This document shows positions 5,340-18,354 of a stretch of DNA of 50,102 nt, one piece after another (within the stretch, counting starts at the first letter, position 1; every line of letters starts with the position of its first letter). Made by a program: the position numbers and the translations under genes. The notes under the pieces were generated by a model. That model ran no database searches. It was not told where the DNA came from and was given only the letters and a program-made list of their open reading frames with translations. The stretch is from NCBI GenBank assembly GCA_013360465.1, contig JABWBO010000039.1, positions 1 to 50,102 on the forward strand. Direction: 5' to 3'. The DNA is from Anaerolineae bacterium. GTDB lineage: Bacteria > Chloroflexota > Anaerolineae > Aggregatilineales > Phototrophicaceae.

Positions 5340-7049
5340 TTATGGCTGCGGTTTGTCTTCCGGCGTCTCGTCGAGCGCCCGGCGGTTGGCGCCGCGCAGC
5401 GCCCGCGCGCCGACCAGCACGCCCACCAGACCGACCACGATCAGCAGCAGACCGCCCAACCCGCCGCCGCTCCCGCCGAAGGCATCGTCGAAGATGCCGG
5501 TATCGGGCAGCGCCGTCGGCGAGGCTTCGACCTGCTGCGCGCCGAGGGTCGGCGAAGGACCGGGCGTCAGCGTCACCGCGTCCGGCGTCAGCACCGAAGC
5601 GGTCGCCGTCTGGAACTGAGCGGCAATCGCCGTCGCCGTCAGGTTGATCGCCGCCAGCGCATCGACGGTCGGCGGGACGGTCGGTTCCACCGTCGCGGGC
5701 GTTTCCGGCGTCGGCGGGACGGTCTCAGAAGGTCCGGGCGTCGGGCTTTCAAACAGCGCCATCTCGATCAGTGCGTCGCGGGTGGCGATGGCGACCTGGG
5801 TGGCAATCGCCGCCTGGGTGGCGAAGATACGCGGCGCGTTTAGAGCATCCTGGGTGGCAGCGTCGATCTGGCTGGCGACTGCCGCCTGCGCATCGAGCGC
5901 CGCCTGGGTCGCTGTGCTGACCTGAGTCGCCAGCACTGCCGGCGTCACGAAATCCGCGCCCGCCGTCGCCTGCTGCTCGAAGAAGGTCTGTGTTTCGGCG
6001 GCGGACTGCGTCGAAAGGGCGAGCGCCGTCGCAATGCCGCCCGGCTGCGCCAGGCTGGGGTCGTTGAACTGCGCCGCCAGATCGGAGACCAGGGTGGCGG
6101 CAGCGGCTTGAGTCGCCCCGGCTGCCTGAGTCGCGGCGCCGAAGGGCGCTTCCAGCGCCGCCTGGGTCATGGCGCTTTCCAGCACCACCTGGGTCAGCAT
6201 CAGCGCCAGCTCGTCACGCTCCTGGGCGATCTCGTCAAGGCGCTGGTTGACGGCATCAATCGCCGACTGCGCGCCGGCGCGGTCGGCTTCGACCGTCGCC
6301 AGGATTTCCGCTGCGATCTGCGCCGCTTCGAGCGCGCCCTGGGTCGCGAGCGCCTGCTGCGTCGCCAGTTCGCTCTGCCGCCCGACGCCCGCCAGCGTGG
6401 CGAAGGCGACTTCGGTGGCGAATCGCTCGCGGATGTTGCCGCTCACGATCACTTCCGGCGTCGCGGTCGGCGGCGGCGGCGGAGTCACCTGCGCCGTCAG
6501 CGCCGCTGCTGCCGTCAGGGTCATCACGTCTGCCGCCAGCGTTTGCAGCGCCAGCAGAGTCGGATCATCGGTCGGGGTCGGCGTGATCGTCGGACGGGGC
6601 GGAGTGTCGGTCGGGATCGGCGTCTCGGACGGGGTGAGCGTCGGCGAAGGCGTGGGCGAAGCCGCCAGCGCGGTCTGCGTCTGCTGAATATTGGCGACAT
6701 CCTGCGTCTGCGTCTCCGCCAGGAAGGCGACCACCTGGGCGTTCTGGGTTTCAATCGCCCAGCGCGTCAGATCAACCGGGGTGGGTCCTGTCTGGCGGGT
6801 TGCCAGGAATAAGATCACGCCCAGCCCGACGACGAACAGGAGGATGAGCAGCACGGCGAGGACGACAAAAGTTCGGTTTCCGCCCTGCGGCTCCGGCTCG
6901 TCGGCGAGATCGGGCATGTCTCCGCCCATCGAGTCGCCTAAGCCGCCGGTTACCCCGGAATCGTCGTCAAGATCGCCAAATGGATCGCTGTCGTCATTGA
7001 AAAAATCGTCGCTGTCGTCGAAGCTGAAATCATCTCTACGGTTGCTCAT
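5340..7049 (-). CDS. Ala/Thr/Gln-rich membrane-anchored surface protein with LPDTG motif
   Basis: This 569-residue protein matches no family I recognise. Residues 1-70 are strongly acidic (DDFSFDDSDDFFNDDSD). A TM helix follows at about 73-95 (FVVLAVLLILLFVVGLGVIL). The next 350 residues combine Pro/Thr linkers (SPTPSPTLTPSETP) with long Ala-rich helices punctuated by ATQ triplets (AATQAAGATQAAAATL, ATQVAIATRDAL), which are likely coiled coil. Near residue 514 comes LPDTG, then a Gly stretch, a second hydrophobic helix (LGGLLLIVVGLVGVLVGA) and RALRGANRR. That is the order of a sortase sorting signal, although the 18-residue cytoplasmic tail is longer than usual. Last gene of the eight-gene operon, 40 nt after the 358-aa gene. 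Inference: a surface stalk or spacer protein. Confidence 0.75.
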   Translation of the reverse strand: MSNRRDDFSFDDSDDFFNDDSDPFGDLDDDSGVTGGLGDSMGGDMPDLADEPEPQGGNRTFVVLAVLLILLFVVGLGVILFLATRQTGPTPVDLTRWAIETQNAQVVAFLAETQTQDVANIQQTQTALAASPTPSPTLTPSETPIPTDTPPRPTITPTPTDDPTLLALQTLAADVMTLTAAAALTAQVTPPPPPTATPEVIVSGNIRERFATEVAFATLAGVGRQSELATQQALATQGALEAAQIAAEILATVEADRAGAQSAIDAVNQRLDEIAQERDELALMLTQVVLESAMTQAALEAPFGAATQAAGATQAAAATLVSDLAAQFNDPSLAQPGGIATALALSTQSAAETQTFFEQQATAGADFVTPAVLATQVSTATQAALDAQAAVASQIDAATQDALNAPRIFATQAAIATQVAIATRDALIEMALFESPTPGPSETVPPTPETPATVEPTVPPTVDALAAINLTATAIAAQFQTATASVLTPDAVTLTPGPSPTLGAQQVEASPTALPDTGIFDDAFGGSGGGLGGLLLIVVGLVGVLVGARALRGANRRALDETPEDKPQP

Positions 7050-7089: not shown

Positions 7090-8166
7090 TTATGCCCCAG
7101 TTACTTCAAGATTCGCCAGTGGCGCCGTGATTTTCTCGCCGGTTGCCAGTTCGACCTGCGCGCACGGAACTCGCAGTCCATTGTCCATGAGAATCGGGGT
7201 TTTTGGCAAATTGACGATCACGCCCATCGATCCTGCCGAGTCGCCGCGCGCCAGACGCACCTGCGCGCCGGGGCGCAGCGTCAAGTTGATATTGGGCAGC
7301 ACCGGACGGTCGTTGGGATCGAAGGGCACACTGACGATCAATTCCGGACGGCGCGATTCCAGCGCCCCCGGCGTTGCCGCATCGAGCGACGCCGTCCGCC
7401 CCGCGACCGTCTCCAAGAACTGCATCACCGGGACGCTCATGCGCATCGTACCGAAGCCCTCGACGAGCAGGATCGCCACCGGGCTGGCTTCCGCCGCGCG
7501 CCGCAGGCTGGGCGCGATGCTGGGCGCGATGATCCCGACGATTTCCTGATCGCGCGCCACCTCCAGGCTGAGCGGGCGCAGCGTGCGGCGGGTGACGACC
7601 AGCGCGCCGCGATAATCGGCTTCCAGCCCGCCGCCTTGAATGCTTTCGATGCCGTCGGACGGTTCGAGGCGTAAGCCGCCGATGACCTGGCGATTGTTCC
7701 CCCAGACGCCCTGGACGACGCCGCCGTAGCCTTCGATCATCACGCCGCGCCCGACCTGCACGTCGATCACCGTGCCATTCAACCCGGCTTGGATCGCCAC
7801 CATCTCGGCGATCCCTTGCAGGACGATCTGCCCGCGCGATACAGCGATCACCGTGCCATCGATGGGCGCGAGCAGCCTGCGCCGCCCGCGCTGCGCCAGG
7901 ATGTCCCCGACTTCGATGCTGCTGCCTTCACCCACCCGCAGCAGCGGCTCGACCTTATCGGGGCGCACATCGAAGAAGCGCGCGGCGTCGATCAGCTTGA
8001 ACGGGGCAGGCGCTGCGCCCTGGACCACCGTGTCGGTCTGCGTCACCCGCGCCCCCCGCGCCACTTCGACATCGCCGGTGGCGGCGTTGGGCAGCATGCG
8101 CGCCCGGCGGACCATGGTGATGCCCAGCAGGTGGCGGTGATCAGGGAAATAGGGTTCGAAGGTCAT
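7090..8166 (-). CDS. Unknown protein with barrel-sandwich and KOW-like segments
   Basis: This 358-residue soluble protein has no clear relative. I start it at ATG 8166 (MTFEPYFPDHRHLLGITMVR). The frame runs further upstream, but that part overlaps the end of the MutL-like gene and looks non-coding, leaving a 26-nt overlap. Residues 85-125 (VGEGSSIEVGDILAQ, APIDGTVIAVSRGQIVLQG) resemble the beta-sandwich hairpins of biotinyl/lipoyl or RnfC-like domains, without a modifiable lysine. The middle (GALVVTRRTLRPLSLEVA, AILLVEGFGTMRMSVPVMQF) looks alpha/beta. The C-terminus (GSMGVIVNLPKTP then CAQVELATGEKITAPLANLEV) resembles a KOW-type small barrel. No signal peptide or TM is present. Its place directly behind the MutL-like ATPase suggests a partner of that protein. 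Confidence 0.7.
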   Translation of the reverse strand: MTFEPYFPDHRHLLGITMVRRARMLPNAATGDVEVARGARVTQTDTVVQGAAPAPFKLIDAARFFDVRPDKVEPLLRVGEGSSIEVGDILAQRGRRRLLAPIDGTVIAVSRGQIVLQGIAEMVAIQAGLNGTVIDVQVGRGVMIEGYGGVVQGVWGNNRQVIGGLRLEPSDGIESIQGGGLEADYRGALVVTRRTLRPLSLEVARDQEIVGIIAPSIAPSLRRAAEASPVAILLVEGFGTMRMSVPVMQFLETVAGRTASLDAATPGALESRRPELIVSVPFDPNDRPVLPNINLTLRPGAQVRLARGDSAGSMGVIVNLPKTPILMDNGLRVPCAQVELATGEKITAPLANLEVTGA

Positions 8167-10171
8167 CGAGATCGTCCTCTGGCGCTGAATTCGCCGCGCC
8201 CGGTTCAGGGATGTTCGCCGCTTCAGTCTCGGCTCCACGTCCGCGCCGACGCGGCAGGCGGCTCCCTCTGTCGGCGGGTTTGGCGGTGGGCGCAGTATCC
8301 GCTTCCGCCTTAGCCGGCGTGACGACGGAAGCCACGCGGTCTTTGCCGCGCGAGTCACGATCCAGCACACTTTCGACGTTGGGTTCGACCTTGCGCGCCG
8401 TCAGCCAGTCTTCGGGGATTTCATAGACCGGGTCTCCGGTGGCGTCGGCGTACCAGCCGACGATCTGCTGGGCGCGGGCTTTGAGGGCGTTTTCCAGCGG
8501 CAGCGGGCGTCCGCGCGCATCCAGGATCAGCCCGGCAGTGCCGCCGACGACCTCCAGTTTGATCCCCCGCCGCCCGCCGATATTCAGCCCGGCGCCGCGG
8601 GCGCGCACGCTGACCGTCGCGCTCACGCCGATGGGCAGCGCGTAGCAGTGCAGCCTGCCGCCTTCGACGGTGAACTTGTCGGTCTCGCCGTTCTCTTTGC
8701 GCACCGTCACCTGCAGGGCGGCGCGACCGTGCCGGGGCTTGCCGGAAAGGCTGATCGCCGTGCCCAGGTCTTCCAAGCCGCCGGCGTCGAGTACCTGCAC
8801 CACCGCCGTCGGGTTGAGCCGCGCCAGCGCTCCCAGCGCCGGGATGAGCGCGGCGGAGTCCATCTGCAGGCGCGCCGCGCCGACCGGCTGCAGGGCATCC
8901 AGCAGCAGCATGGCGGACATGCCGGGACGCCCGGTCCCGGTCAGCGCTGCGCCGGCGGCGATGATGCGGCTGAGCGGCGGCATCGGTTCGCGATGATCGT
9001 CGAGGGCGGTGTCCGGCGTCCAGAGCGGGCGCGCCGCGTCGAGCAGCGTCCGCAGCGCCGTGCGCAGCAGGGCGTGTTCCAGGTAGAGCGTCCGGCGAAT
9101 CTGAGGGATGGTCGCCGGGCGCAGGGTCTTGTTCAGCGCGTAGCCGGTGATTTCATCGTCGTCGGCGATGAAGGGCAGCCAGGCGCTGATGTGTTCCAGC
9201 CCTGCCGCGTCGAGGGTGCTGTCGGCGCTGTGTCCCAGCCCGATGTCGGTGCGGATGCTGGTCGAGACGCTGCCGCCGACCGACGCCGACATGGTGCTGA
9301 CCGCGCTGCCCACATCGACCGCCAGGACGCCGCCCTGTCCCCTGCCGACCGTCGTGCCCAGATAGCGCACAATGCTGTCGTAGCTCTGCGCCGTCGGCAG
9401 GATACCCATGCGCGACTGGTAGCTGACCTGGTCGAAGCCCATACCGCGATGTTCCGAAAAGGCGTCAAAGGCGACGGCGAGCTGCGCTCGCGCATCTTCG
9501 ACCTGTTCGCGCCGCAGCGACGGGCGGACGTTTTCCGCATAGATCACCTGGGCGACGTTCTGGAAAATCTCGTGGATCGATTCGCGCAGGACGCTGTTGC
9601 CGGCGTAGAGGACGGTCGGCGGGACCGAGCGCCGAGTCAGGCGAATCGCCAGGCGCGTCAGCCGCGCCATCTCCAGGATGGGATCGCGCGCCCCGTCTTC
9701 GGTGCCGCCGGCGATGACGATCAGGTCAGGATTGGCGAGGGCGACAGCGTTCAGCCGCTCTTCGCCGCTTCGACGATCTACGGCGCTGATCACTTCGACG
9801 ATCTTGACGTAGGTCCCCGCCGCCGCGCGCAGCACGCTGGCGATGCTCATCTCCGGATACAGCCCGATCACCACCGTGCGCAGCGGACGCCCGACGCTGG
9901 CGGTGGTGAGGAAGATATCGACGCCGGTACGGTCAACCGCCTCCGGGGTGATGACGCGCCCATCGCGCGACAGCAGCTGCCGACCGGTCAGCACGCTCAG
10001 CTTTTCCACCACGCGCCGCAGTCCCACGCCGACGTTGTCGATGGGGAAGCCGGCGGTGGTGCGCTCTTCAGCCGAGGCGATGACGCGATACGCTCCCTCG
10101 ACGAGATCGATCAGGACGGCGCGCGTGTGAATGTTGCCGAAATCGACGGCGAGGATGGAGTTTTCAGCCAT
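8141..10171 (-). CDS. MutL-like (glutamate mutase L family) ASKHA ATPase
   Basis: This 676-residue protein is of the MutL/GlmL family associated with cobalamin mutases; it is unrelated to mismatch-repair MutL. ASKHA nucleotide-binding motifs are visible. PHOSPHATE-1 is ILAVDFGNIHTRAVLID at residues 6-22. PHOSPHATE-2 is GVLAVDVGSAVSTMSASVGG near 280. An adenosine-type loop, IIAAGAALTGTGRPG, lies near 400. Between them, NPDLIVIAGGTEDGARDP is characteristic of the family. The C-terminal 90 residues are a charged, low-complexity tail (LPRRRGRG). I start at ATG 10171, 8 nt after the membrane protein stop. Known relatives sit beside glutamate mutase genes as presumed chaperones, but none is present here. 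Its membrane-protein neighbours suggest a different, envelope-linked use of ATP. Confidence 0.85.
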   Translation of the reverse strand: MAENSILAVDFGNIHTRAVLIDLVEGAYRVIASAEERTTAGFPIDNVGVGLRRVVEKLSVLTGRQLLSRDGRVITPEAVDRTGVDIFLTTASVGRPLRTVVIGLYPEMSIASVLRAAAGTYVKIVEVISAVDRRSGEERLNAVALANPDLIVIAGGTEDGARDPILEMARLTRLAIRLTRRSVPPTVLYAGNSVLRESIHEIFQNVAQVIYAENVRPSLRREQVEDARAQLAVAFDAFSEHRGMGFDQVSYQSRMGILPTAQSYDSIVRYLGTTVGRGQGGVLAVDVGSAVSTMSASVGGSVSTSIRTDIGLGHSADSTLDAAGLEHISAWLPFIADDDEITGYALNKTLRPATIPQIRRTLYLEHALLRTALRTLLDAARPLWTPDTALDDHREPMPPLSRIIAAGAALTGTGRPGMSAMLLLDALQPVGAARLQMDSAALIPALGALARLNPTAVVQVLDAGGLEDLGTAISLSGKPRHGRAALQVTVRKENGETDKFTVEGGRLHCYALPIGVSATVSVRARGAGLNIGGRRGIKLEVVGGTAGLILDARGRPLPLENALKARAQQIVGWYADATGDPVYEIPEDWLTARKVEPNVESVLDRDSRGKDRVASVVTPAKAEADTAPTAKPADRGSRLPRRRGRGAETEAANIPEPGAANSAPEDDLDDLRTLFP

Positions 10172-10179
10172 GTCAGATG

Positions 10180-10827
10180 TCAGCCCCCCACAATCCGGGC
10201 GAGAAGATAGGCGATCCGCTCGCTGAAGATCACCAGACCGCTCAGGATCGCCCCGCCGTAGAGCGCGCCCAGAGTGATGGCGATCACGCCCTGTCCGACA
10301 GCCGCCAGCGCGCGCACCAGCAGCGAACGCTGAGTCATCTCGCTGCCCGGCGTGCGCCGCGCCTGATACTGGAAGTAGACCAGCGTGCAGATGACGCCCA
10401 GGACGATCAGGATGCCGTTGAGCAGCGCGCCGGCGTCCGTCTGCGCGACGCCCCCGGTGGTGGCGCTCACCAGCGGCAGCAGTGTGCCGCTGACCGCGCC
10501 GACGATGGCGACCGCCGTGCCGATGCCGATGATGTACGCCAGCGTCAAGTTCGCCAACCGCTGCAAGCGCCCGACCGCCTTGAAGAGCAGCAGTCCACCC
10601 AGCGCCAGCGGCACGACTCCCACCAGCCCCACCGCTGGATCGCCCGAAAGCACGGTCTGTCGCAGCCAGGGCAGCAGGACCGCTTCGACCGTGACCAGCG
10701 TGACATAGCCGGCGACCAGCCCGATGAAGAGGTAGATCGCCAGGCGGTACAGGAAATTGTCGCCGAGCAAATAGCTGAAGACCATCAACGTGAGGATGAA
10801 CCCGCCCCACAGCCCGATCTGTTCCAT
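10180..10827 (-). CDS. Integral membrane protein, unknown function
   Basis: This 215-residue protein has five or six TM helices: GGFILTLMVFSYLLGDNF, IYLFIGLVAGYVTLVTVEAV, VGLVGVVPLALGGLLLF, LTLAYIIGIGTAVAIVGAV, GILIVLGVICTLVYFQ and AITLGALYGGAILSGLVIF. There is no known motif. I take ATG 10827 as the start; the frame continues 10 codons upstream, but those codons are not conserved-looking. It sits between the 2025-aa scaffold gene and the MutL-like ATPase gene. Its Gly-rich helices and pairing with the 202-aa membrane protein of the same operon suggest both form the membrane part of one complex. That is an inference from gene order. Confidence 0.8.
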   Translation of the reverse strand: MEQIGLWGGFILTLMVFSYLLGDNFLYRLAIYLFIGLVAGYVTLVTVEAVLLPWLRQTVLSGDPAVGLVGVVPLALGGLLLFKAVGRLQRLANLTLAYIIGIGTAVAIVGAVSGTLLPLVSATTGGVAQTDAGALLNGILIVLGVICTLVYFQYQARRTPGSEMTQRSLLVRALAAVGQGVIAITLGALYGGAILSGLVIFSERIAYLLARIVGG

Positions 10828-10866
10828 CACGCATACACCTTCAAGAGGTAAGGGCAATCCCGTCGC

Positions 10867-13800
10867 TTATCCACGCCGCCTCCTGCGCCCACGCAGCAGC
10901 GCCCGCGCGATGTTGATGATCGCCCCGCTGCCGATGACCAGCACGGAGGCGATGATGCCCAGGTTGATCCCATACCAGCGCTCATCGCGCAGCCCCGCCG
11001 AGAAGGTCAGCGGGGCGGGCGTAGGGGGGACGCTCAGTTCGGACGTGTTCGCCTCCTCCATGTCTTCCGGGACGGCGGTCGCCGTCGGTTCCGGCGTATC
11101 GCTCGGCATCGGCGTCGCCGAAGGGCGGCGGGTCGCTGTCGGCGAATCGGTCACCGCCGCTTCAGCGGTCGCCTCCGCAGATGGCGCTGTCGAAGGTTCG
11201 GCAGAGGCGGCCGGCTGGGTACTGGTCGCCGGCGGGGTCGTGGTCGCGCTCGCGGTCGGGCTGGGCGTCGACGTGGCGCTGGCGCGGCGGGTGGGGGGGC
11301 GCGTGTTGGTCATCGGGACATCGACATCCTGACGACGCGGCTCTGCCGTCTGGCGCACTTTGCGAGCGGGCGTCTCCAGGGTCAGCAGGCTGGCGCTGAC
11401 CCAGCCTTCGGTCCCGTCTTCCAGGCGCACATTCGCCCAGGCGCTGTCGTCGTTCGCCCCCAGCACGAACACGCGGGTCCCCGGTTCCAGCCCGCCGATG
11501 ATGGTCCCGTTCGGCTCGGCGCGCAGGTTGACGCGCTGTTCGGCGGAGACGACGGCGATCAACGGCGTCGGCGTGACTTCGGGCGCGCCGACCGGCGCTG
11601 CTTCGACGGTGCTTTCCGGCGTGACTTCCGGGGTCAGTTCGACGGAGCCGACCGGGGCGATCTCGGACTGCGGGGCGGGAGTCGGAAGCGGCGTGCGCAC
11701 CGGGCGCGGGCTGCGGCGGATGGCTTCGACGCCGGTCAGCAGCCCGTCATAGGTCAGCCCATCGCCGAAGCCGATCAGCAGCCCATCGACCGCGCCCGAC
11801 CGGGCGTACGGTTCGACCAGCGGCGCGGCGCTGTAGCTGGACCCCGCTACCAGCGGGGCGCGGGCATACGGCGCGATCTGTTCGGTGTAATCGCGCAGCG
11901 TCTCGCCGCTGTCGGCGATCACCACGATCAGCGCGAAATCATCCAGGCTGTCGATTCCGAGCTGGCTCGCCTGTCCGCGCAGATCGCTGGCGAGCAGGGC
12001 GGCGGTGTCGGCGCTGAAGGTGCGCAGCCCGAGCAGCCCGCCAGGCATGAAGCGCGCCAGGTAGAACTCGTAGCCCTGTTCGAGCGGCTGTACGGCGTTG
12101 ATGCGCGCCATGAAATCGGCATCGGCGCTGATGGCGTCAAACTGGCTTTCGGCGCGCAGCAGCGCCAGCGGGTTGCCGCTGATCACCACCGGCGTCGCCC
12201 CGCGCAGCAGGATGTGCCGCAGGATGGACTGCGTCAGCGGGTCCAGTTCGCCGGACGCCGCCGGACTGTATTCCAGCGCCACCAGCGCCGCTTCTTCGCG
12301 CATCAGCCCATCGACTGCCGCAAACCCTGCCAGCGCCAGCGGGCTGCCGCTGAAATCAGCCGAAGGAGCGCCGCCGATGCGCAGCGCCGGCAGCAGGAAC
12401 GGCGCGATCACCGCCGCCGTCAGCAGCACGACGATCAGCAGTCGGTCGAGCTGGATGCGCCAGCGCCGCCTGGGACGGACGGCGGGGACAGGAACCGCCT
12501 CCTGCGTTTGCACGGGCGGGTGTAGGACGATCTCCTCGCTGCTCTGGATCTCCTCCATGAACGGCGAGTCGTAGGTCATTTCGATGGCGGTCATCTTCTT
12601 GGGCGCAGGCGCGACTCCCACCAGCGCCCGCAGCAGATCGGCGCGCGTCCGCTGCGTCGGGTTGACCTGCAATCCCTGCTCGTCGCCGGGAGCCGCTGTC
12701 TCGCGGGCGCGCCCGATGTCGGCGGCAGTCAAGCCGGCGCTGACGCCGGGCAGCAGTTCGGTCAGCGAGTCGCCAGAGCCGCCTTCTTCGGTTCGAATCT
12801 GCCCGGCGCGCTTGCGCAGTTTGCGCAGGCGTTCGGGAAGCTCCTCTTCCGGGCGGTCCTGACGCTGGCGCACTATCGCCGCCGCCGAAACCTCGTCCAC
12901 CGATGCGCCCATCTGTTCCAGCCAACCGAGATCAGCCGACTCCATGCCTTCCGCGCCGGAAAGGTCGAACGGCGGCACATAGCCTGGACGCTTCTCTTTG
13001 TTCTTCTCAACCGGCTGACTGAGCAGGGCATCGATGTCCATTACGTCGGGGCGGTTGAAGACGACGCTCGTCTGCTGGGAAAGCTGCGGCGCCTCGGCGT
13101 CGAGCGACTCCAGGTAGGTGTCGAGGTCGTCAAAGGGTGGGCTGTCGCTCTTGCCCGCCGGCTCCTCGTGGAAGAAGGCATCGATCTGCGCCGCAGATTC
13201 TCTGACGGACCGGTCGGCGCTGAACTCCTGCGCCCAATCCGCGCCGGCGGCAAGTCCGGTCACATCGGTGAACGGGGTGGGTTCTTCCGGGGCGAACGCC
13301 GCCAGGATATGCTCGTCCCTTTCTTCAGAGGGCAGGACGATGGCGGGAAGCGATGAAGTCTCGCGCTTCCGGGTGTAGGTGTCCGGGACCTCCAGAGAGG
13401 GCGGTGCGTGAGGATCTTCCGGTTCTGCGGGCTGTTCCGCCACCCAGTCGGCGAAGAGATCATCCGAGGCGCGCACATCCTCGCCGTCCTCCACGCCCCA
13501 GGCGGCGAACAGGTCGAAGTCGGGCTGCTCGTCTGCCGGAGCCGCCGGCGGCTCCGGTTCGGCGGTTGTGGCGAATACGTTCTGCGGATGCGTGTCATCT
13601 TCGGCGATGGGCGGCTCGGAATCGAGCGATGCGAAGATGTTGTCCAGCTCGAAGTACTCGTCTGCTGCCGCCTGTCGCGAAGGCTGCGACTCGTCGCCAA
13701 GACCGAAGACCGACATGAAATCGTCCGTCGCGGCGACTTCGATGTCTTTCGAGTCGCCAAGGCTGAAGAGCGGATCGTCGTCGCCCGGCATTTCGAATTC

Positions 13801-16800
13801 ATGCATGGGCTGCGTCTTGTACGGATCGGTTGGAGAGCGCGGCGGTTCAGCCGCCTGTCCCGGCTGATCCCAGTCCGACAGACCGAGCGCTTCGGCGTCT
13901 TCCGGCGAAGTGACCATGCCTTCGCCGCCGGGAAGCTCCCAATCATCCAGGTTTAGGGCGTCCAGCCCGTCGGCTTCGCCGGCAGGCGCGTCAGGGGCAG
14001 GCGCGGGCGATTCAGCCTCGCTTTGCAGGTCGGGGAAATCGAACGTCTCGGCTTCATCCTCGGCAGGTTCAGCCTCTTCGAAGAACATCGCCGACAGCTC
14101 CTCCGTCCGCTTCAGGCGGGAGGTCGCCGGCAGCGGCGGGGGCGGCGACGCTGGCGCTGCGTCTTCTTCGAACTCGTCGAAGTTGAGGGTGTCGATCTCT
14201 TCGTCGCTGGCGAGCTGGAAGGCGCTGGGCGTGCGCGCTTCGGCGGATTCCCACGCATCATCGAAGTTGAGGGTGTCAATCTCCTCGTCTTCGCTGGGCT
14301 GGAAGGCGCTGGGCGTGCGCATTTCGGGCGTATCCCAACTGCCGAAATCGATAGTCTCGATCCCTTCGCCGACCGCTGCTTCACCGCCGGGCGACTGCGG
14401 CTGAATCGCATCCCAGCCGCTGAAGTCGATGGTGTCGATGCCTTCACCTTCACTGCCGGGCGTTGACACGCCCGCCGGCTGCGCCTGCGCCGCGTCGTCC
14501 CAATCACCGAAGTCGAGCGTATCGACGCCTTCGAGATCACTTTCCTGGTCTTCGGCGTCGCCTTGCGGTTCAGTCGCGCCCACCACCGGGGGCGGCGGCG
14601 CGTCCCATTTGCCGAAGTCGATGGTGTCGAAGCTGCTCTCTTCCGACGAGGGCGCCGATGCCGCCGGGAAGGCAGGCGCGCCGCCATCCAGGACATCGAA
14701 CTCGCCGAGATCGATGGTATCTGATCCCGCCTGATGCAGGTCGAACAGATCATCTTCGACCGTGCTGGGCGGCAGATCCCATCTTCCAGAACCGACGACT
14801 TCCAGTTGATCATCTTCTTCGGGTTCGGGCATGTGCGCCGCCCCTGTCGGCTGGGTAGGCAGCGAGTCTTCCAGCAGGTCGTCGGTCATCCAGCCGGATC
14901 GCAGCTCCGCTTCCAGAGAGCCGTCGCTGTCGAGCGCCCCTGGTAGGTCGTCGTCCTCATATTCGGCGAGCGGGGCAGCGCCCTGAACGATGCGCTCCCA
15001 TGCCTCCATCTCGCTGAGGCTGTTGTCGTCGCTTTCGCCGAACAGATCCTCGAACTCCGGGGCGGGGACAGCGCCTGCCGGCTCGGCGGCGAGATCCGCC
15101 GGGATGCTCCAACTGCTGTCCAGCCCTGGCGACTCGCCTTCATCGTCCGCCGCGTACAGACTGGCGAAATCCAGGCTGTCTGCTTCATCGGAAGACGGCG
15201 CGGCGGGCGTTGGCAGGGGCATGGAGGCGGGCAGCTGCGGCGCGGCGGCGGGTATTTCTTCCGTCGGCTGCTGCCTGGCGCGCCTGATCAAGCCGCTCAG
15301 CCCGGTATCCTCCGGGCGGGGCATGCGCATGGTCGGCGCTTCGGCGCTGGCGTCTTCCTGCTGAATGCCGCTCAGCCAATCGATATCGCTTTCTTCGGCT
15401 TGCGCCTCGACATCAGGATCGACGGCGCTGGAGTCGTCCCAGGAGAATGCCGCATCGCTCGCGCTCGAAGTGCGCGACCGGATCACCGGTGATTCTGCCG
15501 CGTCATCCTCATATTCGGGCAGATCATCGAAGGACACTGCGTCGCGCTGCACCGCTTCGACATTATCCAGGGCGCGCGGGTCGAGCGCGCGGGTCGCCGC
15601 CGTGACCATGCTGTCGATCTCCGAGAGCCAGGACAGACTGTCCTCGCCGACGCTGATCGCCGCATCGGCATCTTCCTGCTCCTGCGCCGGCGGGGGCGGT
15701 TCGCGCCGTTCGACAAACAGATCGAGATCAGGATCGTCGATGTCGTCCAGCGAGGGCGCAGGCTGCGGAGCAGGCGCGCCGATGCCTTCGAGGAAGGCGT
15801 CCAGCTCGTTCTGCGGGATCTCGACCGGCTCCGGGCGCGGCGGTTTGGCGAGGGTTGGGGCTTGCGATTCGGAGTCTTCGAAATCGTCGAAGCGGATCGT
15901 CTCGTTAGCCTCAATCGCGAAGAGTTCGTCGCGGAAATCCTCGAAGTTGATCGACTGGCTCGACGACGCCGGGGCGGCGGCAGCCGGCGCGAAAGACTCG
16001 TCCTGGAGATCGTCGAAGCGAATGGTCTCGTTGGACCCCGGAGCATCGTCGAAATCATCGAAGCGGATAGTCTGCCCGCCGCTGACCGGGCGCGGCGGCG
16101 GTGGAGCCTCCAGCTCATCGTCATCCAGCCGCCGGGTCGCGCCGCCGACCTCCTGGCTGTTCAGCGTGCCGGTGACGAATCCCAGATCGGGGAAGTCGTC
16201 ATCGCCGTCCGCCGGGCTGGACGGTGCGGCGGACTTGCCGACCAGTTCGCTGAAGAACCCCTCCGATGGCAGATCGAGATCGGAGAAGCTGTCTTCGCTC
16301 TCCTGAACGCCCAAATCGAGGAAGAAATCGGCGAACGGGTCGGCTTTGGGCGGCTCTGGCGGCGGCGCTTCTTCAGCGGGCGCGGCGTTTGTGCCGATCT
16401 GGCGCACCCAGTCGGGGGCGTCGCGTTCGTCCAGTTCTTCCAGTCCGAGGAACCAGTCCGGGAGCTGGCTGGTCCCGCCGGTGACCTCGCGCATCGGGTA
16501 GGCGGACGCCGGCTGATCCTCAGATTCCGTTCCGAACTCGGAAAAGATGTCGGGGATCTCCTCTTCGACGCTCTTCTCGCGTTTCGATTCGACCTGCTCG
16601 GCGAGCCAGTTGTCGAATGTCTGCTCGCTGTCCACGCTGTCGGCAAGCTCGTCGGCAGAGTCGAAGAATTCGCTCGATACTTCCATGCTGCCGATCTTGA
16701 AGCGCTTCTCTTCCGGCGCTTGCAGACCCCGCAGCCAGGGCGGAACGGATTCATCCGCTGCATCGTCGCCCGTCTGACGCGGCGAGAGCCGGGGGATGAC

Positions 16801-16944
16801 GGGTTTGTCGGCAGATTCCTGAGGCGCGGGTTTCGGCGGCGTCGGCGTCGGCGGCGCGCTGCGCAGCCAGGGCGGCAGATTTGCCTCGCTGTCGTCGCCC
16901 GACACATCGTCGTTCGGCTGCTGTTTCTTCGGTTCTTGCGCCAT
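10867..16944 (-). CDS. Giant acidic scaffold protein with two TM helices, repeat motifs and SH3 domain
   Basis: This 2025-residue protein has residues 1-1495 predicted cytoplasmic, very acidic and Pro-rich. It carries two families of short linear motifs. One is Trp-Leu based (PPWLRSA, PPWLRGL, LPDWFLGLEEL, DSLSWLSEID, SDIDWLSGIQ, ADLGWLEQMG). The other is about thirteen copies of [DE]-[TSA]-[IL]-x-[FL]-x-x-[WF]-[DE] between about residues 290 and 1025 (NETIRFDDFED, DTIDFGKWDAP, ETIDFGSWDTP). TM1 is at about 1501-1523. It is followed by a 200-residue extracytoplasmic alpha/beta domain (VALEYSPAASGELDPL, GATPVVISGNPLAL) and a bacterial SH3 domain at about 1800-1858 (VNLRAEPNGTIIGGL, GWVSASLLTLE). 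A Thr/Ser/Pro linker and a C-terminal TM (about 1991-2013) ending in RRRRRG complete it. No function is known; the layout suggests a membrane-spanning docking scaffold. Confidence 0.8.
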   Translation of the reverse strand: MAQEPKKQQPNDDVSGDDSEANLPPWLRSAPPTPTPPKPAPQESADKPVIPRLSPRQTGDDAADESVPPWLRGLQAPEEKRFKIGSMEVSSEFFDSADELADSVDSEQTFDNWLAEQVESKREKSVEEEIPDIFSEFGTESEDQPASAYPMREVTGGTSQLPDWFLGLEELDERDAPDWVRQIGTNAAPAEEAPPPEPPKADPFADFFLDLGVQESEDSFSDLDLPSEGFFSELVGKSAAPSSPADGDDDFPDLGFVTGTLNSQEVGGATRRLDDDELEAPPPPRPVSGGQTIRFDDFDDAPGSNETIRFDDLQDESFAPAAAAPASSSQSINFEDFRDELFAIEANETIRFDDFEDSESQAPTLAKPPRPEPVEIPQNELDAFLEGIGAPAPQPAPSLDDIDDPDLDLFVERREPPPPAQEQEDADAAISVGEDSLSWLSEIDSMVTAATRALDPRALDNVEAVQRDAVSFDDLPEYEDDAAESPVIRSRTSSASDAAFSWDDSSAVDPDVEAQAEESDIDWLSGIQQEDASAEAPTMRMPRPEDTGLSGLIRRARQQPTEEIPAAAPQLPASMPLPTPAAPSSDEADSLDFASLYAADDEGESPGLDSSWSIPADLAAEPAGAVPAPEFEDLFGESDDNSLSEMEAWERIVQGAAPLAEYEDDDLPGALDSDGSLEAELRSGWMTDDLLEDSLPTQPTGAAHMPEPEEDDQLEVVGSGRWDLPPSTVEDDLFDLHQAGSDTIDLGEFDVLDGGAPAFPAASAPSSEESSFDTIDFGKWDAPPPPVVGATEPQGDAEDQESDLEGVDTLDFGDWDDAAQAQPAGVSTPGSEGEGIDTIDFSGWDAIQPQSPGGEAAVGEGIETIDFGSWDTPEMRTPSAFQPSEDEEIDTLNFDDAWESAEARTPSAFQLASDEEIDTLNFDEFEEDAAPASPPPPLPATSRLKRTEELSAMFFEEAEPAEDEAETFDFPDLQSEAESPAPAPDAPAGEADGLDALNLDDWELPGGEGMVTSPEDAEALGLSDWDQPGQAAEPPRSPTDPYKTQPMHEFEMPGDDDPLFSLGDSKDIEVAATDDFMSVFGLGDESQPSRQAAADEYFELDNIFASLDSEPPIAEDDTHPQNVFATTAEPEPPAAPADEQPDFDLFAAWGVEDGEDVRASDDLFADWVAEQPAEPEDPHAPPSLEVPDTYTRKRETSSLPAIVLPSEERDEHILAAFAPEEPTPFTDVTGLAAGADWAQEFSADRSVRESAAQIDAFFHEEPAGKSDSPPFDDLDTYLESLDAEAPQLSQQTSVVFNRPDVMDIDALLSQPVEKNKEKRPGYVPPFDLSGAEGMESADLGWLEQMGASVDEVSAAAIVRQRQDRPEEELPERLRKLRKRAGQIRTEEGGSGDSLTELLPGVSAGLTAADIGRARETAAPGDEQGLQVNPTQRTRADLLRALVGVAPAPKKMTAIEMTYDSPFMEEIQSSEEIVLHPPVQTQEAVPVPAVRPRRRWRIQLDRLLIVVLLTAAVIAPFLLPALRIGGAPSADFSGSPLALAGFAAVDGLMREEAALVALEYSPAASGELDPLTQSILRHILLRGATPVVISGNPLALLRAESQFDAISADADFMARINAVQPLEQGYEFYLARFMPGGLLGLRTFSADTAALLASDLRGQASQLGIDSLDDFALIVVIADSGETLRDYTEQIAPYARAPLVAGSSYSAAPLVEPYARSGAVDGLLIGFGDGLTYDGLLTGVEAIRRSPRPVRTPLPTPAPQSEIAPVGSVELTPEVTPESTVEAAPVGAPEVTPTPLIAVVSAEQRVNLRAEPNGTIIGGLEPGTRVFVLGANDDSAWANVRLEDGTEGWVSASLLTLETPARKVRQTAEPRRQDVDVPMTNTRPPTRRASATSTPSPTASATTTPPATSTQPAASAEPSTAPSAEATAEAAVTDSPTATRRPSATPMPSDTPEPTATAVPEDMEEANTSELSVPPTPAPLTFSAGLRDERWYGINLGIIASVLVIGSGAIINIARALLRGRRRRRG

Positions 16945-16950
16945 GACGTT

Positions 16951-17559
16951 TTACTCGCGAATTGAACGTTCTTGACCGGTGAGTACGCGCACGCCGGTGA
17001 CCACCGTGGCGAGCGCGATGCCGATGAGCAGCCCGCGCGCCCCCGCGCTGACCGGGACGGTCATCAACCAGTCACGGACGGCGGCGACCGGGGCGACGGT
17101 GGTCAGCGGCAGCGCGCCGACCAGCACGACGATAACCACGACAGTGAAGATCATGCCGCTGAGCGTGACCCGGCGGCGCATCAGCCGGTAGGCTCCGAAG
17201 ACCAGCGCGAAGAAGACCAGCGCGCCCAGCGAAGCCTCGACGCTGACCTGAACGGTATCCAGAAGCATCTGATTCGTCTCGCGCTGTCCGACGATTCCCA
17301 GGATTAGCACGGTGAAGAAGGCTGCCAGCAGCGCCAGGCTGTAGTACCAACCGCGCCGCCGGCGCAGCAGCCGCCCGCCGTGTACGCCGATCAGGTTGAA
17401 GACGCCCATGAGGATGGTCACGGCGACGGTGATCACCGCGATTTGCAGCATGGTCTGAGTCAGACCAAACAGAGGGATGCCGAGCATCTGCTCGACCAGG
17501 ATGATCAGCCCAACGCCGATGGCGAGCGCCGTCGAGAGGAGGGTGAGGAGTCGTCGCAT
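16951..17559 (-). CDS. Integral membrane protein, unknown function
   Basis: This 202-residue protein has about six TM helices: LLTLLSTALAIGVGLIILVEQM, TMLQIAVITVAVTILMGVFNLI, YYSLALLAAFFTVLILGIVG, LGALVFFALVFGAYRLM, SGMIFTVVVIVVLVGALPLT and a C-terminal GLLIGIALATVVTGVRVL. Basic clusters (RLLRRRRGWY, RLMRRR) mark cytoplasmic loops by the positive-inside rule. No catalytic motif is visible. It lies 3 nt after the DUF6754-like gene stop and 6 nt before the scaffold gene, so it is firmly part of the operon. It has no recognisable similarity to transporters I know. Confidence 0.82.
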   Translation of the reverse strand: MRRLLTLLSTALAIGVGLIILVEQMLGIPLFGLTQTMLQIAVITVAVTILMGVFNLIGVHGGRLLRRRRGWYYSLALLAAFFTVLILGIVGQRETNQMLLDTVQVSVEASLGALVFFALVFGAYRLMRRRVTLSGMIFTVVVIVVLVGALPLTTVAPVAAVRDWLMTVPVSAGARGLLIGIALATVVTGVRVLTGQERSIRE

Positions 17560-17562
17560 CGC

Positions 17563-18354
17563 TTAGCCCCCTCCGCTCAGGCGCGCCAGACCTTCGCTCA
17601 GCGGCACGCGCAGCGCCACTAGCGCGCTGCCGATGATGCCCAGGATGACCAGCCAGCGCAGCACGTCCTGGGCTGCCAGCGCCGCCTTGTGCGAAGGCGC
17701 GCCGCCCAGGTAAGCGCCGGCGGCGAACAGCTCTTCGCCGATCAGCGGTTCATCCGCCATCGCATAGGCGACCGCCATGCCATCCAGACGGGCGCTGCCC
17801 GCCACGCTCACGCCGCGCCGCCGGGCGATTGCCTCCAGCGGCAGCGCCAGCGTCGCGTCGAACTCGCCGACGTAAACCCCGCCGGAGGCGCGTTCGTCGC
17901 CGATGTCGGCGACCAGGGCGGCGGACATCGCCAGCGACGCCGCAGGTGCCCAGCGCGCTGCCGTCACGGCGTAGCGATCCAGCCGATTAGCATCGGTGTA
18001 GGCGCGGCGGATCGCGCTCATCATCAGCGGCAGCGCGCCCGATTCGCCGACAACCGCCAGGGGTGGATCGCCCGCGACCGCCGTTCGTGAGGCGATCTGA
18101 TACAGCATTTCAGCGCTCGCCAGCGCCAGCGCGGTCGATGCTCCGCCGAGCGCCGCGTTGCCCGTCGCCATCTGCACCCGCCTGCCCGATTCCACCGCTT
18201 CGCCCACCAGGCGCGGCGCGAGGTCATAGGCGGGGAGGGCGCGCAGGACGTAGAAGTCGCGCCGCCGCCGGGCGAACTGCGTTCCGATCAGCGTCACGAC
18301 GACCGCCGTGAGGATGATCAGCGTCGTTAAAACCTGTGTTGTGCTGTCCACCAC
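17563..18354 (-). CDS. DUF6754-like membrane protein
   Basis: This 263-residue protein has an N-terminal TM (QVLTTLIILTAVVVTLIGTQF), a basic cytoplasmic linker (ARRRRDFY) and a central domain. That domain runs LRALPAYDLAPRLVGEAVESGRRVQMATGNAALGG in pattern, then LALASAEMLYQIA, PPLAVVGESGALPLMMSAIRRAY and GGVYVGEFDATLALPLEAI. The protein ends in a TM (LRWLVILGIIGSALVALRV). The ALPAYDLAPRLVGEAVESGRRV pattern and the VGES segment match my memory of DUF6754 proteins in Chloroflexota and some archaea; their function is undescribed. The central domain, with alternating strands and helices, should sit on the cytoplasmic or outer side between two helices. Spacing to neighbours is 3-6 nt. Confidence 0.72.
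   Translation of the reverse strand: MVDSTTQVLTTLIILTAVVVTLIGTQFARRRRDFYVLRALPAYDLAPRLVGEAVESGRRVQMATGNAALGGASTALALASAEMLYQIASRTAVAGDPPLAVVGESGALPLMMSAIRRAYTDANRLDRYAVTAARWAPAASLAMSAALVADIGDERASGGVYVGEFDATLALPLEAIARRRGVSVAGSARLDGMAVAYAMADEPLIGEELFAAGAYLGGAPSHKAALAAQDVLRWLVILGIIGSALVALRVPLSEGLARLSGGG

What the first reader, a model, noticed from the sequence alone, without database searches (positions are those of the whole stretch)
10867..16944. About thirteen copies of an acidic aromatic short motif plus Trp-Leu motifs in a 2025-aa protein
The cytoplasmic part repeats [DE]-[TSA]-[IL]-x-[FL]-x-x-[WF]-[DE] about thirteen times and W-L motifs about six times within disordered-looking acidic sequence. 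Periodic aromatic/acidic short motifs often act as multivalent docking sites. Extracytoplasmic alpha/beta and SH3 domains at the other end suggest a link between cytoplasmic clients and the cell wall.
Basis: partly seen in the sequence, partly recalled or inferred. Interest (0 to 1): 0.72.

Follow-up and report, generated by a model that had tools for sequence, protein, structure and literature searches.

The report
Membrane scaffold with repeated Trp-Leu tags

Summary
The 2025-aa ORF is real. The minor element, Trp-Leu, is the real one. P-x-W-hydrophobic occurs in all 51 tails of 200 aa or more, in up to 63 copies; seven of the window's ten W-hydrophobic tryptophans are identical in seven congeners. 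The protein sits in a conserved, uncharacterised operon (DUF6754, two membrane proteins, MutL-like protein). The same motif fills a separately encoded TPR protein in Anaerolineae, whose close orthologue co-occurs with the system (53 both, 16 and 4 alone, 228 neither) and was not found in five genomes that lack the tail. Best reading: a membrane-anchored multivalent docking scaffold with unknown receptor. The TPR domain as receptor is suggested by co-occurrence but got no support from structure prediction or charge.

The parts
10867..16944 (-). BIG: 2025-aa protein: acidic PxWL tail, TM1, alpha/beta ectodomain, Thr/Pro linker with SH3, TM2, Arg-rich C-terminus
   Evidence: ORF; a match to aa 1481-1857 in 41 of 41 genomes, own included, the best one covering the alpha/beta part in 39 and only the SH3 part in G015 and G024
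12481..16944 (-). Cytoplasmic disordered acidic tail, aa 1-1488
   Evidence: composition; charge-hydropathy
16861..16875 (-). PxWL motif 1 (PPWLR, W26)
   Evidence: W26 identical in 7 of 7 congeners
16729..16743 (-). PxWL motif 2 (PPWLR, W70)
   Evidence: W70 identical in 7 of 7 congeners
16600..16614 (-). W-hydrophobic motif DNWLA, W113
   Evidence: W113 identical in 7 of 7 congeners
16441..16461 (-). PxW-hydrophobic motif 3 (PDWFLGL, W164)
   Evidence: W164 identical in 7 of 7 congeners
16402..16416 (-). PxW-hydrophobic motif 4 (PDWVR, W179)
   Evidence: W179 identical in 7 of 7 congeners
15616..15636 (-). W-L motif LSWLSEI, W439
   Evidence: W439 identical in 7 of 7 congeners
15364..15384 (-). 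W-L motif IDWLSGI, W523
   Evidence: W523 identical in 7 of 7 congeners
15877..16074 (-).
   Evidence: not conserved
13867..14721 (-).
   Evidence: not conserved
12799..12939 (-). Juxtamembrane block with W1341 and the basic stretch VRQRQDRPEEELPERLRKLRKR
   Evidence: the 50-residue block from aa 1351 has the highest identity of the tail, 0.54; W1341 itself identical in 4 of 7
12394..12450 (-). TM1, about aa 1499-1517
   Evidence: hydropathy; helix 19-37 of the model
11731..12351 (-). Extracytoplasmic Rossmann-like alpha/beta domain, aa 1532-1738
   Evidence: AlphaFold2; structure comparison; alignment A1
11383..11532 (-). SH3_3 domain, aa 1805-1854
   Evidence: Pfam PF08239, 38 bits
10906..10962 (-). 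TM2, about aa 1995-2013
   Evidence: hydropathy
17563..18354 (-). Operon: DUF6754 membrane protein
   Evidence: PF20539 E 1.5e-23; synteny
16951..17559 (-). Operon: protein with several hydrophobic segments, no Pfam or NCBIfam match
   Evidence: synteny
10180..10857 (-). Operon: protein with several hydrophobic segments, no Pfam match in any of 27 members
   Evidence: synteny
8141..10171 (-). Operon: MutL/GlmL-like protein (start by first Met; actin-like ATPase fold recalled, not tested)
   Evidence: PF13941 E 5.2e-60; below the curated cut-offs of the GlmL NCBIfam models
7090..8166 (-). Operon: protein with a weak NqrA_N-like stretch (start by Met, approximate)
   Evidence: E 0.076, below cut-off; synteny
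5340..7049 (-). Operon: acidic FDFDD-type tail, TM, Ala/Thr/Gln-rich part, LPDTG-like C-terminal anchor
   Evidence: sequence; relatives' N-termini

Best explanation
BIG is a two-TM membrane protein whose long acidic disordered N-terminal tail hangs in the cytoplasm and displays a repeated short linear motif, roughly [DE]-x-x-P-x-W-[LMF], with R/K enriched two after the W. Shown: the motif repeats beyond composition, it is conserved in position near the N-terminus and in kind across Chloroflexota, copy number is free (1 to 63), it is shared with a TPR protein without a TM seen here (and with a zinc-ribbon-like protein in one lineage), and the protein belongs to a conserved membrane operon. Inferred: each motif is a weak binding site for one folded receptor, many copies give avidity, and the tail gathers the receptor, and through it the motif-bearing TPR protein, at the membrane next to the MutL-like protein and DUF6754 module, whose outside face is the BIG alpha/beta domain.
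For: PxW-hydrophobic is above all 500 shuffles in 44 of 51 tails of 200 aa or more, and present in all 51. Seven of ten W-hydrophobic tryptophans identical in 7 congeners against 0.21 mean identity of the tail. Tandem expansions with different periods in different lineages (for example 14, 16, 22-23, 27, 29 aa). Among array copies that still match the motif, P and L codons differ synonymously in up to 74% and 87% of copy pairs, so the arrays are not all recent copies (L071 is low, 8% and 27%). R/K at W+2 in 52 of 243 motifs (order) and 183 of 417 (other loci) against 4.6% background. In 7 genomes scanned with the motif profile the ORFs with several profile hits were BIG, the TPR proteins (G000, G152) and a MutL-like C-terminus with two (G150). 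W268, the first motif after the TPR domain, identical in 20 of 20. Operon conserved. Co-occurrence with the close TPR orthologue.
Against: No receptor was identified and no binding was shown. Relatives without the tail keep the operon (five genomes of family f26), so the tail is not needed for the module's basic work. The motif also occurs in genomes without a BIG match: a zinc-ribbon-like protein (L280, L285) and TPR proteins (L284 with 3, L286 with 5), so it is not specific to this protein. G019 has a tail with 4 motifs but no TPR match. In the window's own tail PxW-hydrophobic is only 4 against 0.65 expected and 2 of 500 shuffles reach it. Shuffles do not remove the effect of tandem duplication. 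The regex fixes P and W, so only the synonymous part is informative.
Confidence: 0.6

Rival explanations
1. The TPR N-domain of the co-occurring TPR protein is itself the PxWL receptor: it binds the BIG tail in trans and its own linker in cis, giving a self-associating membrane assembly.
For: Close TPR orthologue (E<=1e-70) together with the ectodomain in 53 genomes, ectodomain alone 16, TPR alone 4, neither 228; G335 and G095 among the exceptions are explained by contig ends. Not found in the five f26 genomes without a tail. The W next to the TPR domain is identical in 20 of 20. In f35 genomes without BIG the TPR relative occurs beside other PxWL proteins. TPR solenoids often bind short peptides (recalled).
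Against: AlphaFold2 gives the solenoid (to about aa 264) with high confidence but leaves the adjacent motif unplaced (block 261-270 mean 59, 269-340 below 50). The TPR domain is itself acidic in 28 of 29 (net -3 to -26), against an acidic tail. TPR relatives at weaker scores are common (157 of 301 at E<=1e-15), and those of G059 and G069 carry no PxWL. G176 has no tail but has the TPR domain, and G019 the reverse. In Chloroflexia-like genomes 8 of 9 TPR orthologues carry no PxWL.
Confidence: 0.25
2. One reading: the acidic-aromatic repeats are the docking sites.
For: 9 strict copies against 0.012 expected; also 9 in the sister species. A loosely similar core (FSLEEL, FSFDNF; my regex) is repeated 6-28 times in TPR proteins of 9 Chloroflexia-like genomes.
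Against: 0-1 copies in the 33 other orthologues; residues less conserved than the tail; between the two sister species the motif is not significantly more constant than the rest (8 of 117 against 133 of 1301 changed or gapped, p 0.33).
Confidence: 0.08
3. The tail is an acidic entropic brush or solubility spacer whose motifs are by-products of composition and of tandem duplication.
For: Length varies from about 300 to about 1680 aa; composition is similar throughout; a stretch of about 50 aa in L028 is near-identical three times (seen).
Against: Counts exceed composition shuffles about 6- to 41-fold; single W positions identical over poorly conserved flanks; same motif in a different protein.
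Confidence: 0.12
4. The whole is a gliding or polarity apparatus, the tail organising a Roadblock/GTPase type switch at the membrane.
Against: Relatives of the Roadblock gene are seen in 8 of 37 TPR loci, nucleoside diphosphate kinase in 27; no GTPase or motility gene was tested; the system is in lineages not known to glide (recalled).
Confidence: 0.1

Closest known systems
CsoS2, disordered repeat scaffold of alpha-carboxysomes (search listing and abstract starts only: PMC11365436, PMC10484944, PMC11481516)
   Same: Disordered bacterial protein with conserved repeated short motifs that gather a client and bridge it to another layer
   Different: Not membrane anchored (recalled), different motifs, homology not tested; client of BIG unknown
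PodJ / PopZ polarity scaffolds of Caulobacter (search listing and abstract starts only: PMC9684454, PMC10127582)
   Same: Scaffold that organises partners at the pole; disordered parts and PodJ as a membrane protein are recalled
   Different: No sequence relation tested; no tandem PxWL array known to me (recalled)
MutL/GlmL family (PF13941)
   Same: The operon's neighbour matches PF13941 at 5.2e-60
   Different: Far below the curated cut-off for GlmL (88.8 against 475 bits) and in a membrane operon, so not mutase reactivation by this evidence
Bacterial SH3_3 proteins
   Same: One SH3_3 domain outside the membrane
   Different: Looks like a clade add-on: the match stops before or just inside it in 15 of 34 orthologues of the order

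Membership tests
Multivalent short-linear-motif scaffold (functional class) | Repeated motif beyond composition in a disordered region | tested here: met
   (disorder by charge-hydropathy only)
Multivalent short-linear-motif scaffold (functional class) | Motif conserved while spacers drift | tested here: met
   W of W-hydrophobic: 0.83 against 0.21; three of ten not fully conserved; W268 20 of 20
Multivalent short-linear-motif scaffold (functional class) | A folded receptor binds the motif | not testable with these tools
   No complex prediction between different chains was possible; in-cis TPR model gave no docking
SH3_3 (PF08239) | Score above the gathering cut-off | tested here: met
   38 against 27 bits
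DUF6754 (PF20539), neighbour gene | Score above the gathering cut-off | tested here: met
   83.7 against 27 bits; 40 of 41 genomes over cut-off
GlmL (NF040745), neighbour gene | Score above the equivalog cut-off | tested here: not met
   88.8 against 475 bits
Rossmann-like dehydrogenase/RCK folds (ectodomain) | Same fold | tested here: inconclusive
   Foldseek best E 1.3e-3 with TM-score 0.27; VIA-align best Z 11.5 to 1kjn over 142 residues, rmsd 3.1, then Z 7.9-9.3 for the other 49 rows
DUF6754 as homologue of the BIG ectodomain | Profile-profile match | tested here: inconclusive
   hhalign probability 0.6%, matching only the TM segment; a weak profile match does not exclude a shared fold

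The most novel reading that the evidence does not exclude
PxWL is a Chloroflexota-specific cellular address code: one undiscovered receptor recognises the tag on a membrane hub, on TPR adaptors and on zinc-ribbon proteins, so that a set of otherwise unrelated proteins is concentrated on a membrane machine made of DUF6754, a MutL-like ATPase and two uncharacterised membrane proteins. (Phyla other than Chloroflexota were not searched for the motif.)
Probability: 0.3. Interest if true: 0.82.

Novelty: new variant of a known kind. Interest (0 to 1): 0.62.

Why it matters
Repeated-motif disordered scaffolds are known in bacteria, but seven searches of the held papers aimed at this phylum, motif or operon (listings only, no paper opened) showed no title on such a system, and none holds the word DUF6754. 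Here the motif can be read from sequence, is shared by genes on different contigs or far apart on one chromosome, and varies from 1 to 63 copies in a conserved operon, so evolution has done a valency series. That makes the questions of what the receptor is, and what the operon builds at the membrane, directly testable in culturable filamentous relatives.

Tried and rejected
Ectodomain homologous to DUF6754: no support. Ectodomain relative in solved structures by sequence: only weak matches, best E 0.01 to EutS over 55 residues, judged chance; DUF6754 none. Fold comparison of the ectodomain: Rossmann-like generalities. TPR model: TPR solenoids. Pfam on the 27 members of the 10180-10857 family: nothing. 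Search of the own genome with aa 1-200: only itself. Single profile hits in ordinary enzymes (L188, L191) and a kinase-like protein (L189), and a leucine-rich repeat protein (L190, 7 PxW-hydrophobics by regex) were judged chance or a different thing. The tandem-repeat finder reported no DNA array spanning the motif clusters. Literature searches: see Why it matters.

Choices told: the E<=1e-70 cut in the co-occurrence count was chosen after seeing the list; relatedness of genomes is not corrected. The contingency table typed into one search had 54/15/4/228; on recount G059 (1.5e-70) falls outside the cut, so the right figures are 53/16/4/228, and I quote no p value. Of the 69 ectodomain genomes, operon loci of 41 were read (own genome, 20, 20). 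Tails cut by contig ends (for example L053, L054, L258, L265, L267) are underestimates. TPR rows L239 and L240 (linker under 200 aa) are left out of the linker counts; they have 0 and 1 PxW-hydrophobic.
Full report
WHAT IS THERE. The ORF is at 10867-16944 on the minus strand, 2025 aa. It has an acidic tail of about 1490 aa, TM1, an alpha/beta domain, a Thr/Pro linker with an SH3_3 domain, TM2 and an Arg-rich end.

In 41 genomes, own included, aa 1481-1857 have a match; in 39 the best match covers the alpha/beta part, in G015 and G024 only SH3. I read 34 orthologue loci. The strict motif is found 9 times in the ~95%-identical L021 and 0-1 times in each of the other 33. In an alignment with 7 congeners the whole tail has mean identity 0.21; the residues of the 13 relaxed motifs 0.14 and their hydrophobic positions 0.13; the W of W-hydrophobic pairs 0.83, with seven of ten identical in all 7, W685 in 5, W1341 in 4 and W1167 in none; the 13 other W 0.16. 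Between the two sister species motif residues changed in 8 of 117 and the rest in 133 of 1301, not a significant difference. The acidic-aromatic motif is therefore best seen as a local expansion; the Trp-Leu motif is the conserved one.

THE PxWL MOTIF ACROSS THE PHYLUM. A profile of the ectodomain matches in 69 of 301 genomes drawn from the phylum (one of them, G148, has no operon genes in the stretch read and is probably not a member). In loci from other lineages the tail carries up to 63 copies of sequences such as DVPAWLQEAEP, at median spacings of 14 to 35 residues in the richer ones. Of 51 tails of at least 200 aa all have at least one PxW-hydrophobic; 44 exceed all 500 shuffles, and in the other 7, the window's own among them (4 copies, 0.65 expected), 2 to 43 of 500 shuffles reach the count. 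Around the W, P at -2, D/E at -4, L at +1 and R/K at +2 are enriched. The 20 further loci gave tails with 0-14 copies: those of G055, G145 and G059 are N-terminal stretches of low acidity without W-hydrophobic, and G216 and G240 have a single copy.

LINEAGES WITHOUT THE TAIL. Five genomes of one family with 1.9-2.6 Mb (G061, G080, G123, G147, G267) have the ectodomain with at most 38 residues before the TM region, and operon genes around it (G147 is cut by a contig end). G176 has a 104-residue stretch without W. So TM plus ectodomain is the core, and the tail is an elaboration or was lost there.

THE OPERON. In 34 loci of the order the neighbours are DUF6754 (29), a hydrophobic protein (29), BIG (34), another hydrophobic protein (33), a MutL-like protein (32), a barrel-like protein (30) and an acidic-tailed anchor protein (18) in the same order; absences of the first five are at contig ends. 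In 20 loci of other lineages DUF6754 was found in 18 and the first hydrophobic protein, BIG, the second one and the MutL-like protein in 20 each, the barrel-like protein in 10. None has a described function here; DUF6754 gives no paper in the library.

A SECOND CARRIER. A profile of 48 real 18-residue motif segments (A5), searched in 7 genomes, found in the window's genome BIG and two neighbouring ORFs on another contig, and in G152 BIG and one ORF of 1034 aa. The latter and the 1135-aa one are TPR proteins: an N-terminal TPR solenoid, an acidic linker with PxWL, and in G152 a C-terminal TPR; the 754-aa ORF has PxWL and a weak C-terminal TPR match (20 bits, cut-off 27). In G158 and G206 only BIG was rich in hits, and the tail-less G061 and G123 had 2 and 1 weak single hits. 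A scan of 24 genomes with no tail, no BIG or unclear status gave mostly single hits; the multi-copy ORFs that I opened were a BIG tail cut by a contig end (G335), the TPR protein of G095 cut at its N-terminus, a small TPR/PxWL protein in G128, and a zinc-ribbon-like protein with 7 copies in G108 and G099, which have no BIG match. TPR relatives of the same family f35 have 3 (G108) and 5 (G319) PxW-hydrophobics; those of G059, G069, G145 and G182 have none, that of G310 one. Close orthologues of the TPR protein were found in 39 of 45 chosen genomes; missing in G019, G208, G061, G080, G123, G147. Linkers of 26 (all but L238 from Anaerolineae) have 3-20 PxW-hydrophobics; 8 of 9 Chloroflexia-like ones have none and all 9 have 6-28 copies of an FSLEEL-like motif instead. 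In 20 orthologues of the order the W of the first motif after the TPR domain is identical.

CO-OCCURRENCE. With E<=1e-70 for the TPR profile (a cut set after seeing the list), both genes in 53, ectodomain only 16, TPR only 4 (G069, G128, G270, G335), neither 228 of 301 genomes. G335 and G095 are contig-end artefacts. The ectodomain-only set includes all five f26 genomes; four others (G208, G216, G240, G330) have tails with only 1-2 motifs. Against a strict link: G176 has no tail but is in the 'both' set, with a 309-aa TPR ORF, and G019 has a tail with 4 motifs but no TPR match. At looser scores TPR relatives are much wider (157 of 301 at 1e-15), so this is an association with the close orthologue only, and relatedness is not corrected.

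IS THE TPR DOMAIN THE RECEPTOR? AlphaFold2 of aa 1-340 with 20 orthologues gives a confident solenoid to about aa 264 and leaves the adjacent motif unplaced. Net charge of the domain is negative in 28 of 29. Neither supports it; neither excludes it. The receptor stays open.

ECTODOMAIN. Confident alpha/beta model. Foldseek finds nothing with E<=0.001. VIA-align ranks 1kjn first (Z 11.5, 142 residues, rmsd 3.1) above Rossmann and RCK folds at Z 7.9-9.3. The fold class is Rossmann-like; function is not implied. The BLAST match stops before or just inside SH3 in 15 of 34 orthologues, not counting L031, cut by its contig, so a cell-wall link is at most a clade feature.

WHERE IT COMES FROM. That G158, G278, G150 and G206 are Chloroflexus aurantiacus, C. 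aggregans, Herpetosiphon aurantiacus and Roseiflexus sp. RS-1, and the word 'Chloroflexia-like', are recalled from chromosome lengths, not from a call.

VERDICT. Mechanism as docking scaffold is inference at 0.6; receptor unknown.

Noticed in passing
window 5340-7049 (-): Last gene of the operon has its own acidic FSFDDSDDFF-type tail before a TM, an Ala/Thr/Gln-rich outside part and an LPDTG-like sequence before a C-terminal hydrophobic anchor; similar acidic N-termini are seen in the 18 relatives listed.
   Followed up: partly
window 8141-10171 (-), C-terminus: The MutL-like protein ends in an acidic peptide (DDLDDLRTLFP here; DDVDELRNLFS-like in many relatives), another candidate short motif.
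   Followed up: no
L072, L073, L083: In these three loci the MutL-like protein itself carries two PxWL-type motifs near its C-terminus.
   Followed up: no
L244, L246, L243: A Roadblock/LC7 gene lies directly downstream of the TPR gene, followed by a nucleoside diphosphate kinase (NDK confirmed with Pfam in L244 and L186).
   Followed up: partly
L244:2430-7844 and L246:2510-7834: TPR orthologues carry many copies of a different repeat (TPFSLEELGLSPEEIAQLE in L244), and L246 has a Sigma70_r1_1 match at aa 854-923 (24.9 bits, cut-off 22.5).
   Followed up: partly
L280:3330-4823, L285:2661-4166: Zinc-ribbon-like proteins (by their Cys pattern, not tested) with 7 PxW-hydrophobic motifs (LIDMSALPAWLREGQ type) in genomes with no match to the BIG ectodomain.
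   Followed up: partly
L028:5813-12598: Tail contains three near-identical copies of about 50 residues (DAYSFASAADAEPEFDFNAADMFAAEGG...), a recent duplication in another part of the tail.
   Followed up: no
L289, L292: Distant TPR relatives have a TPR domain fused to what looks like a caspase- or gingipain-like part (my reading of the sequence, not tested).
   Followed up: no
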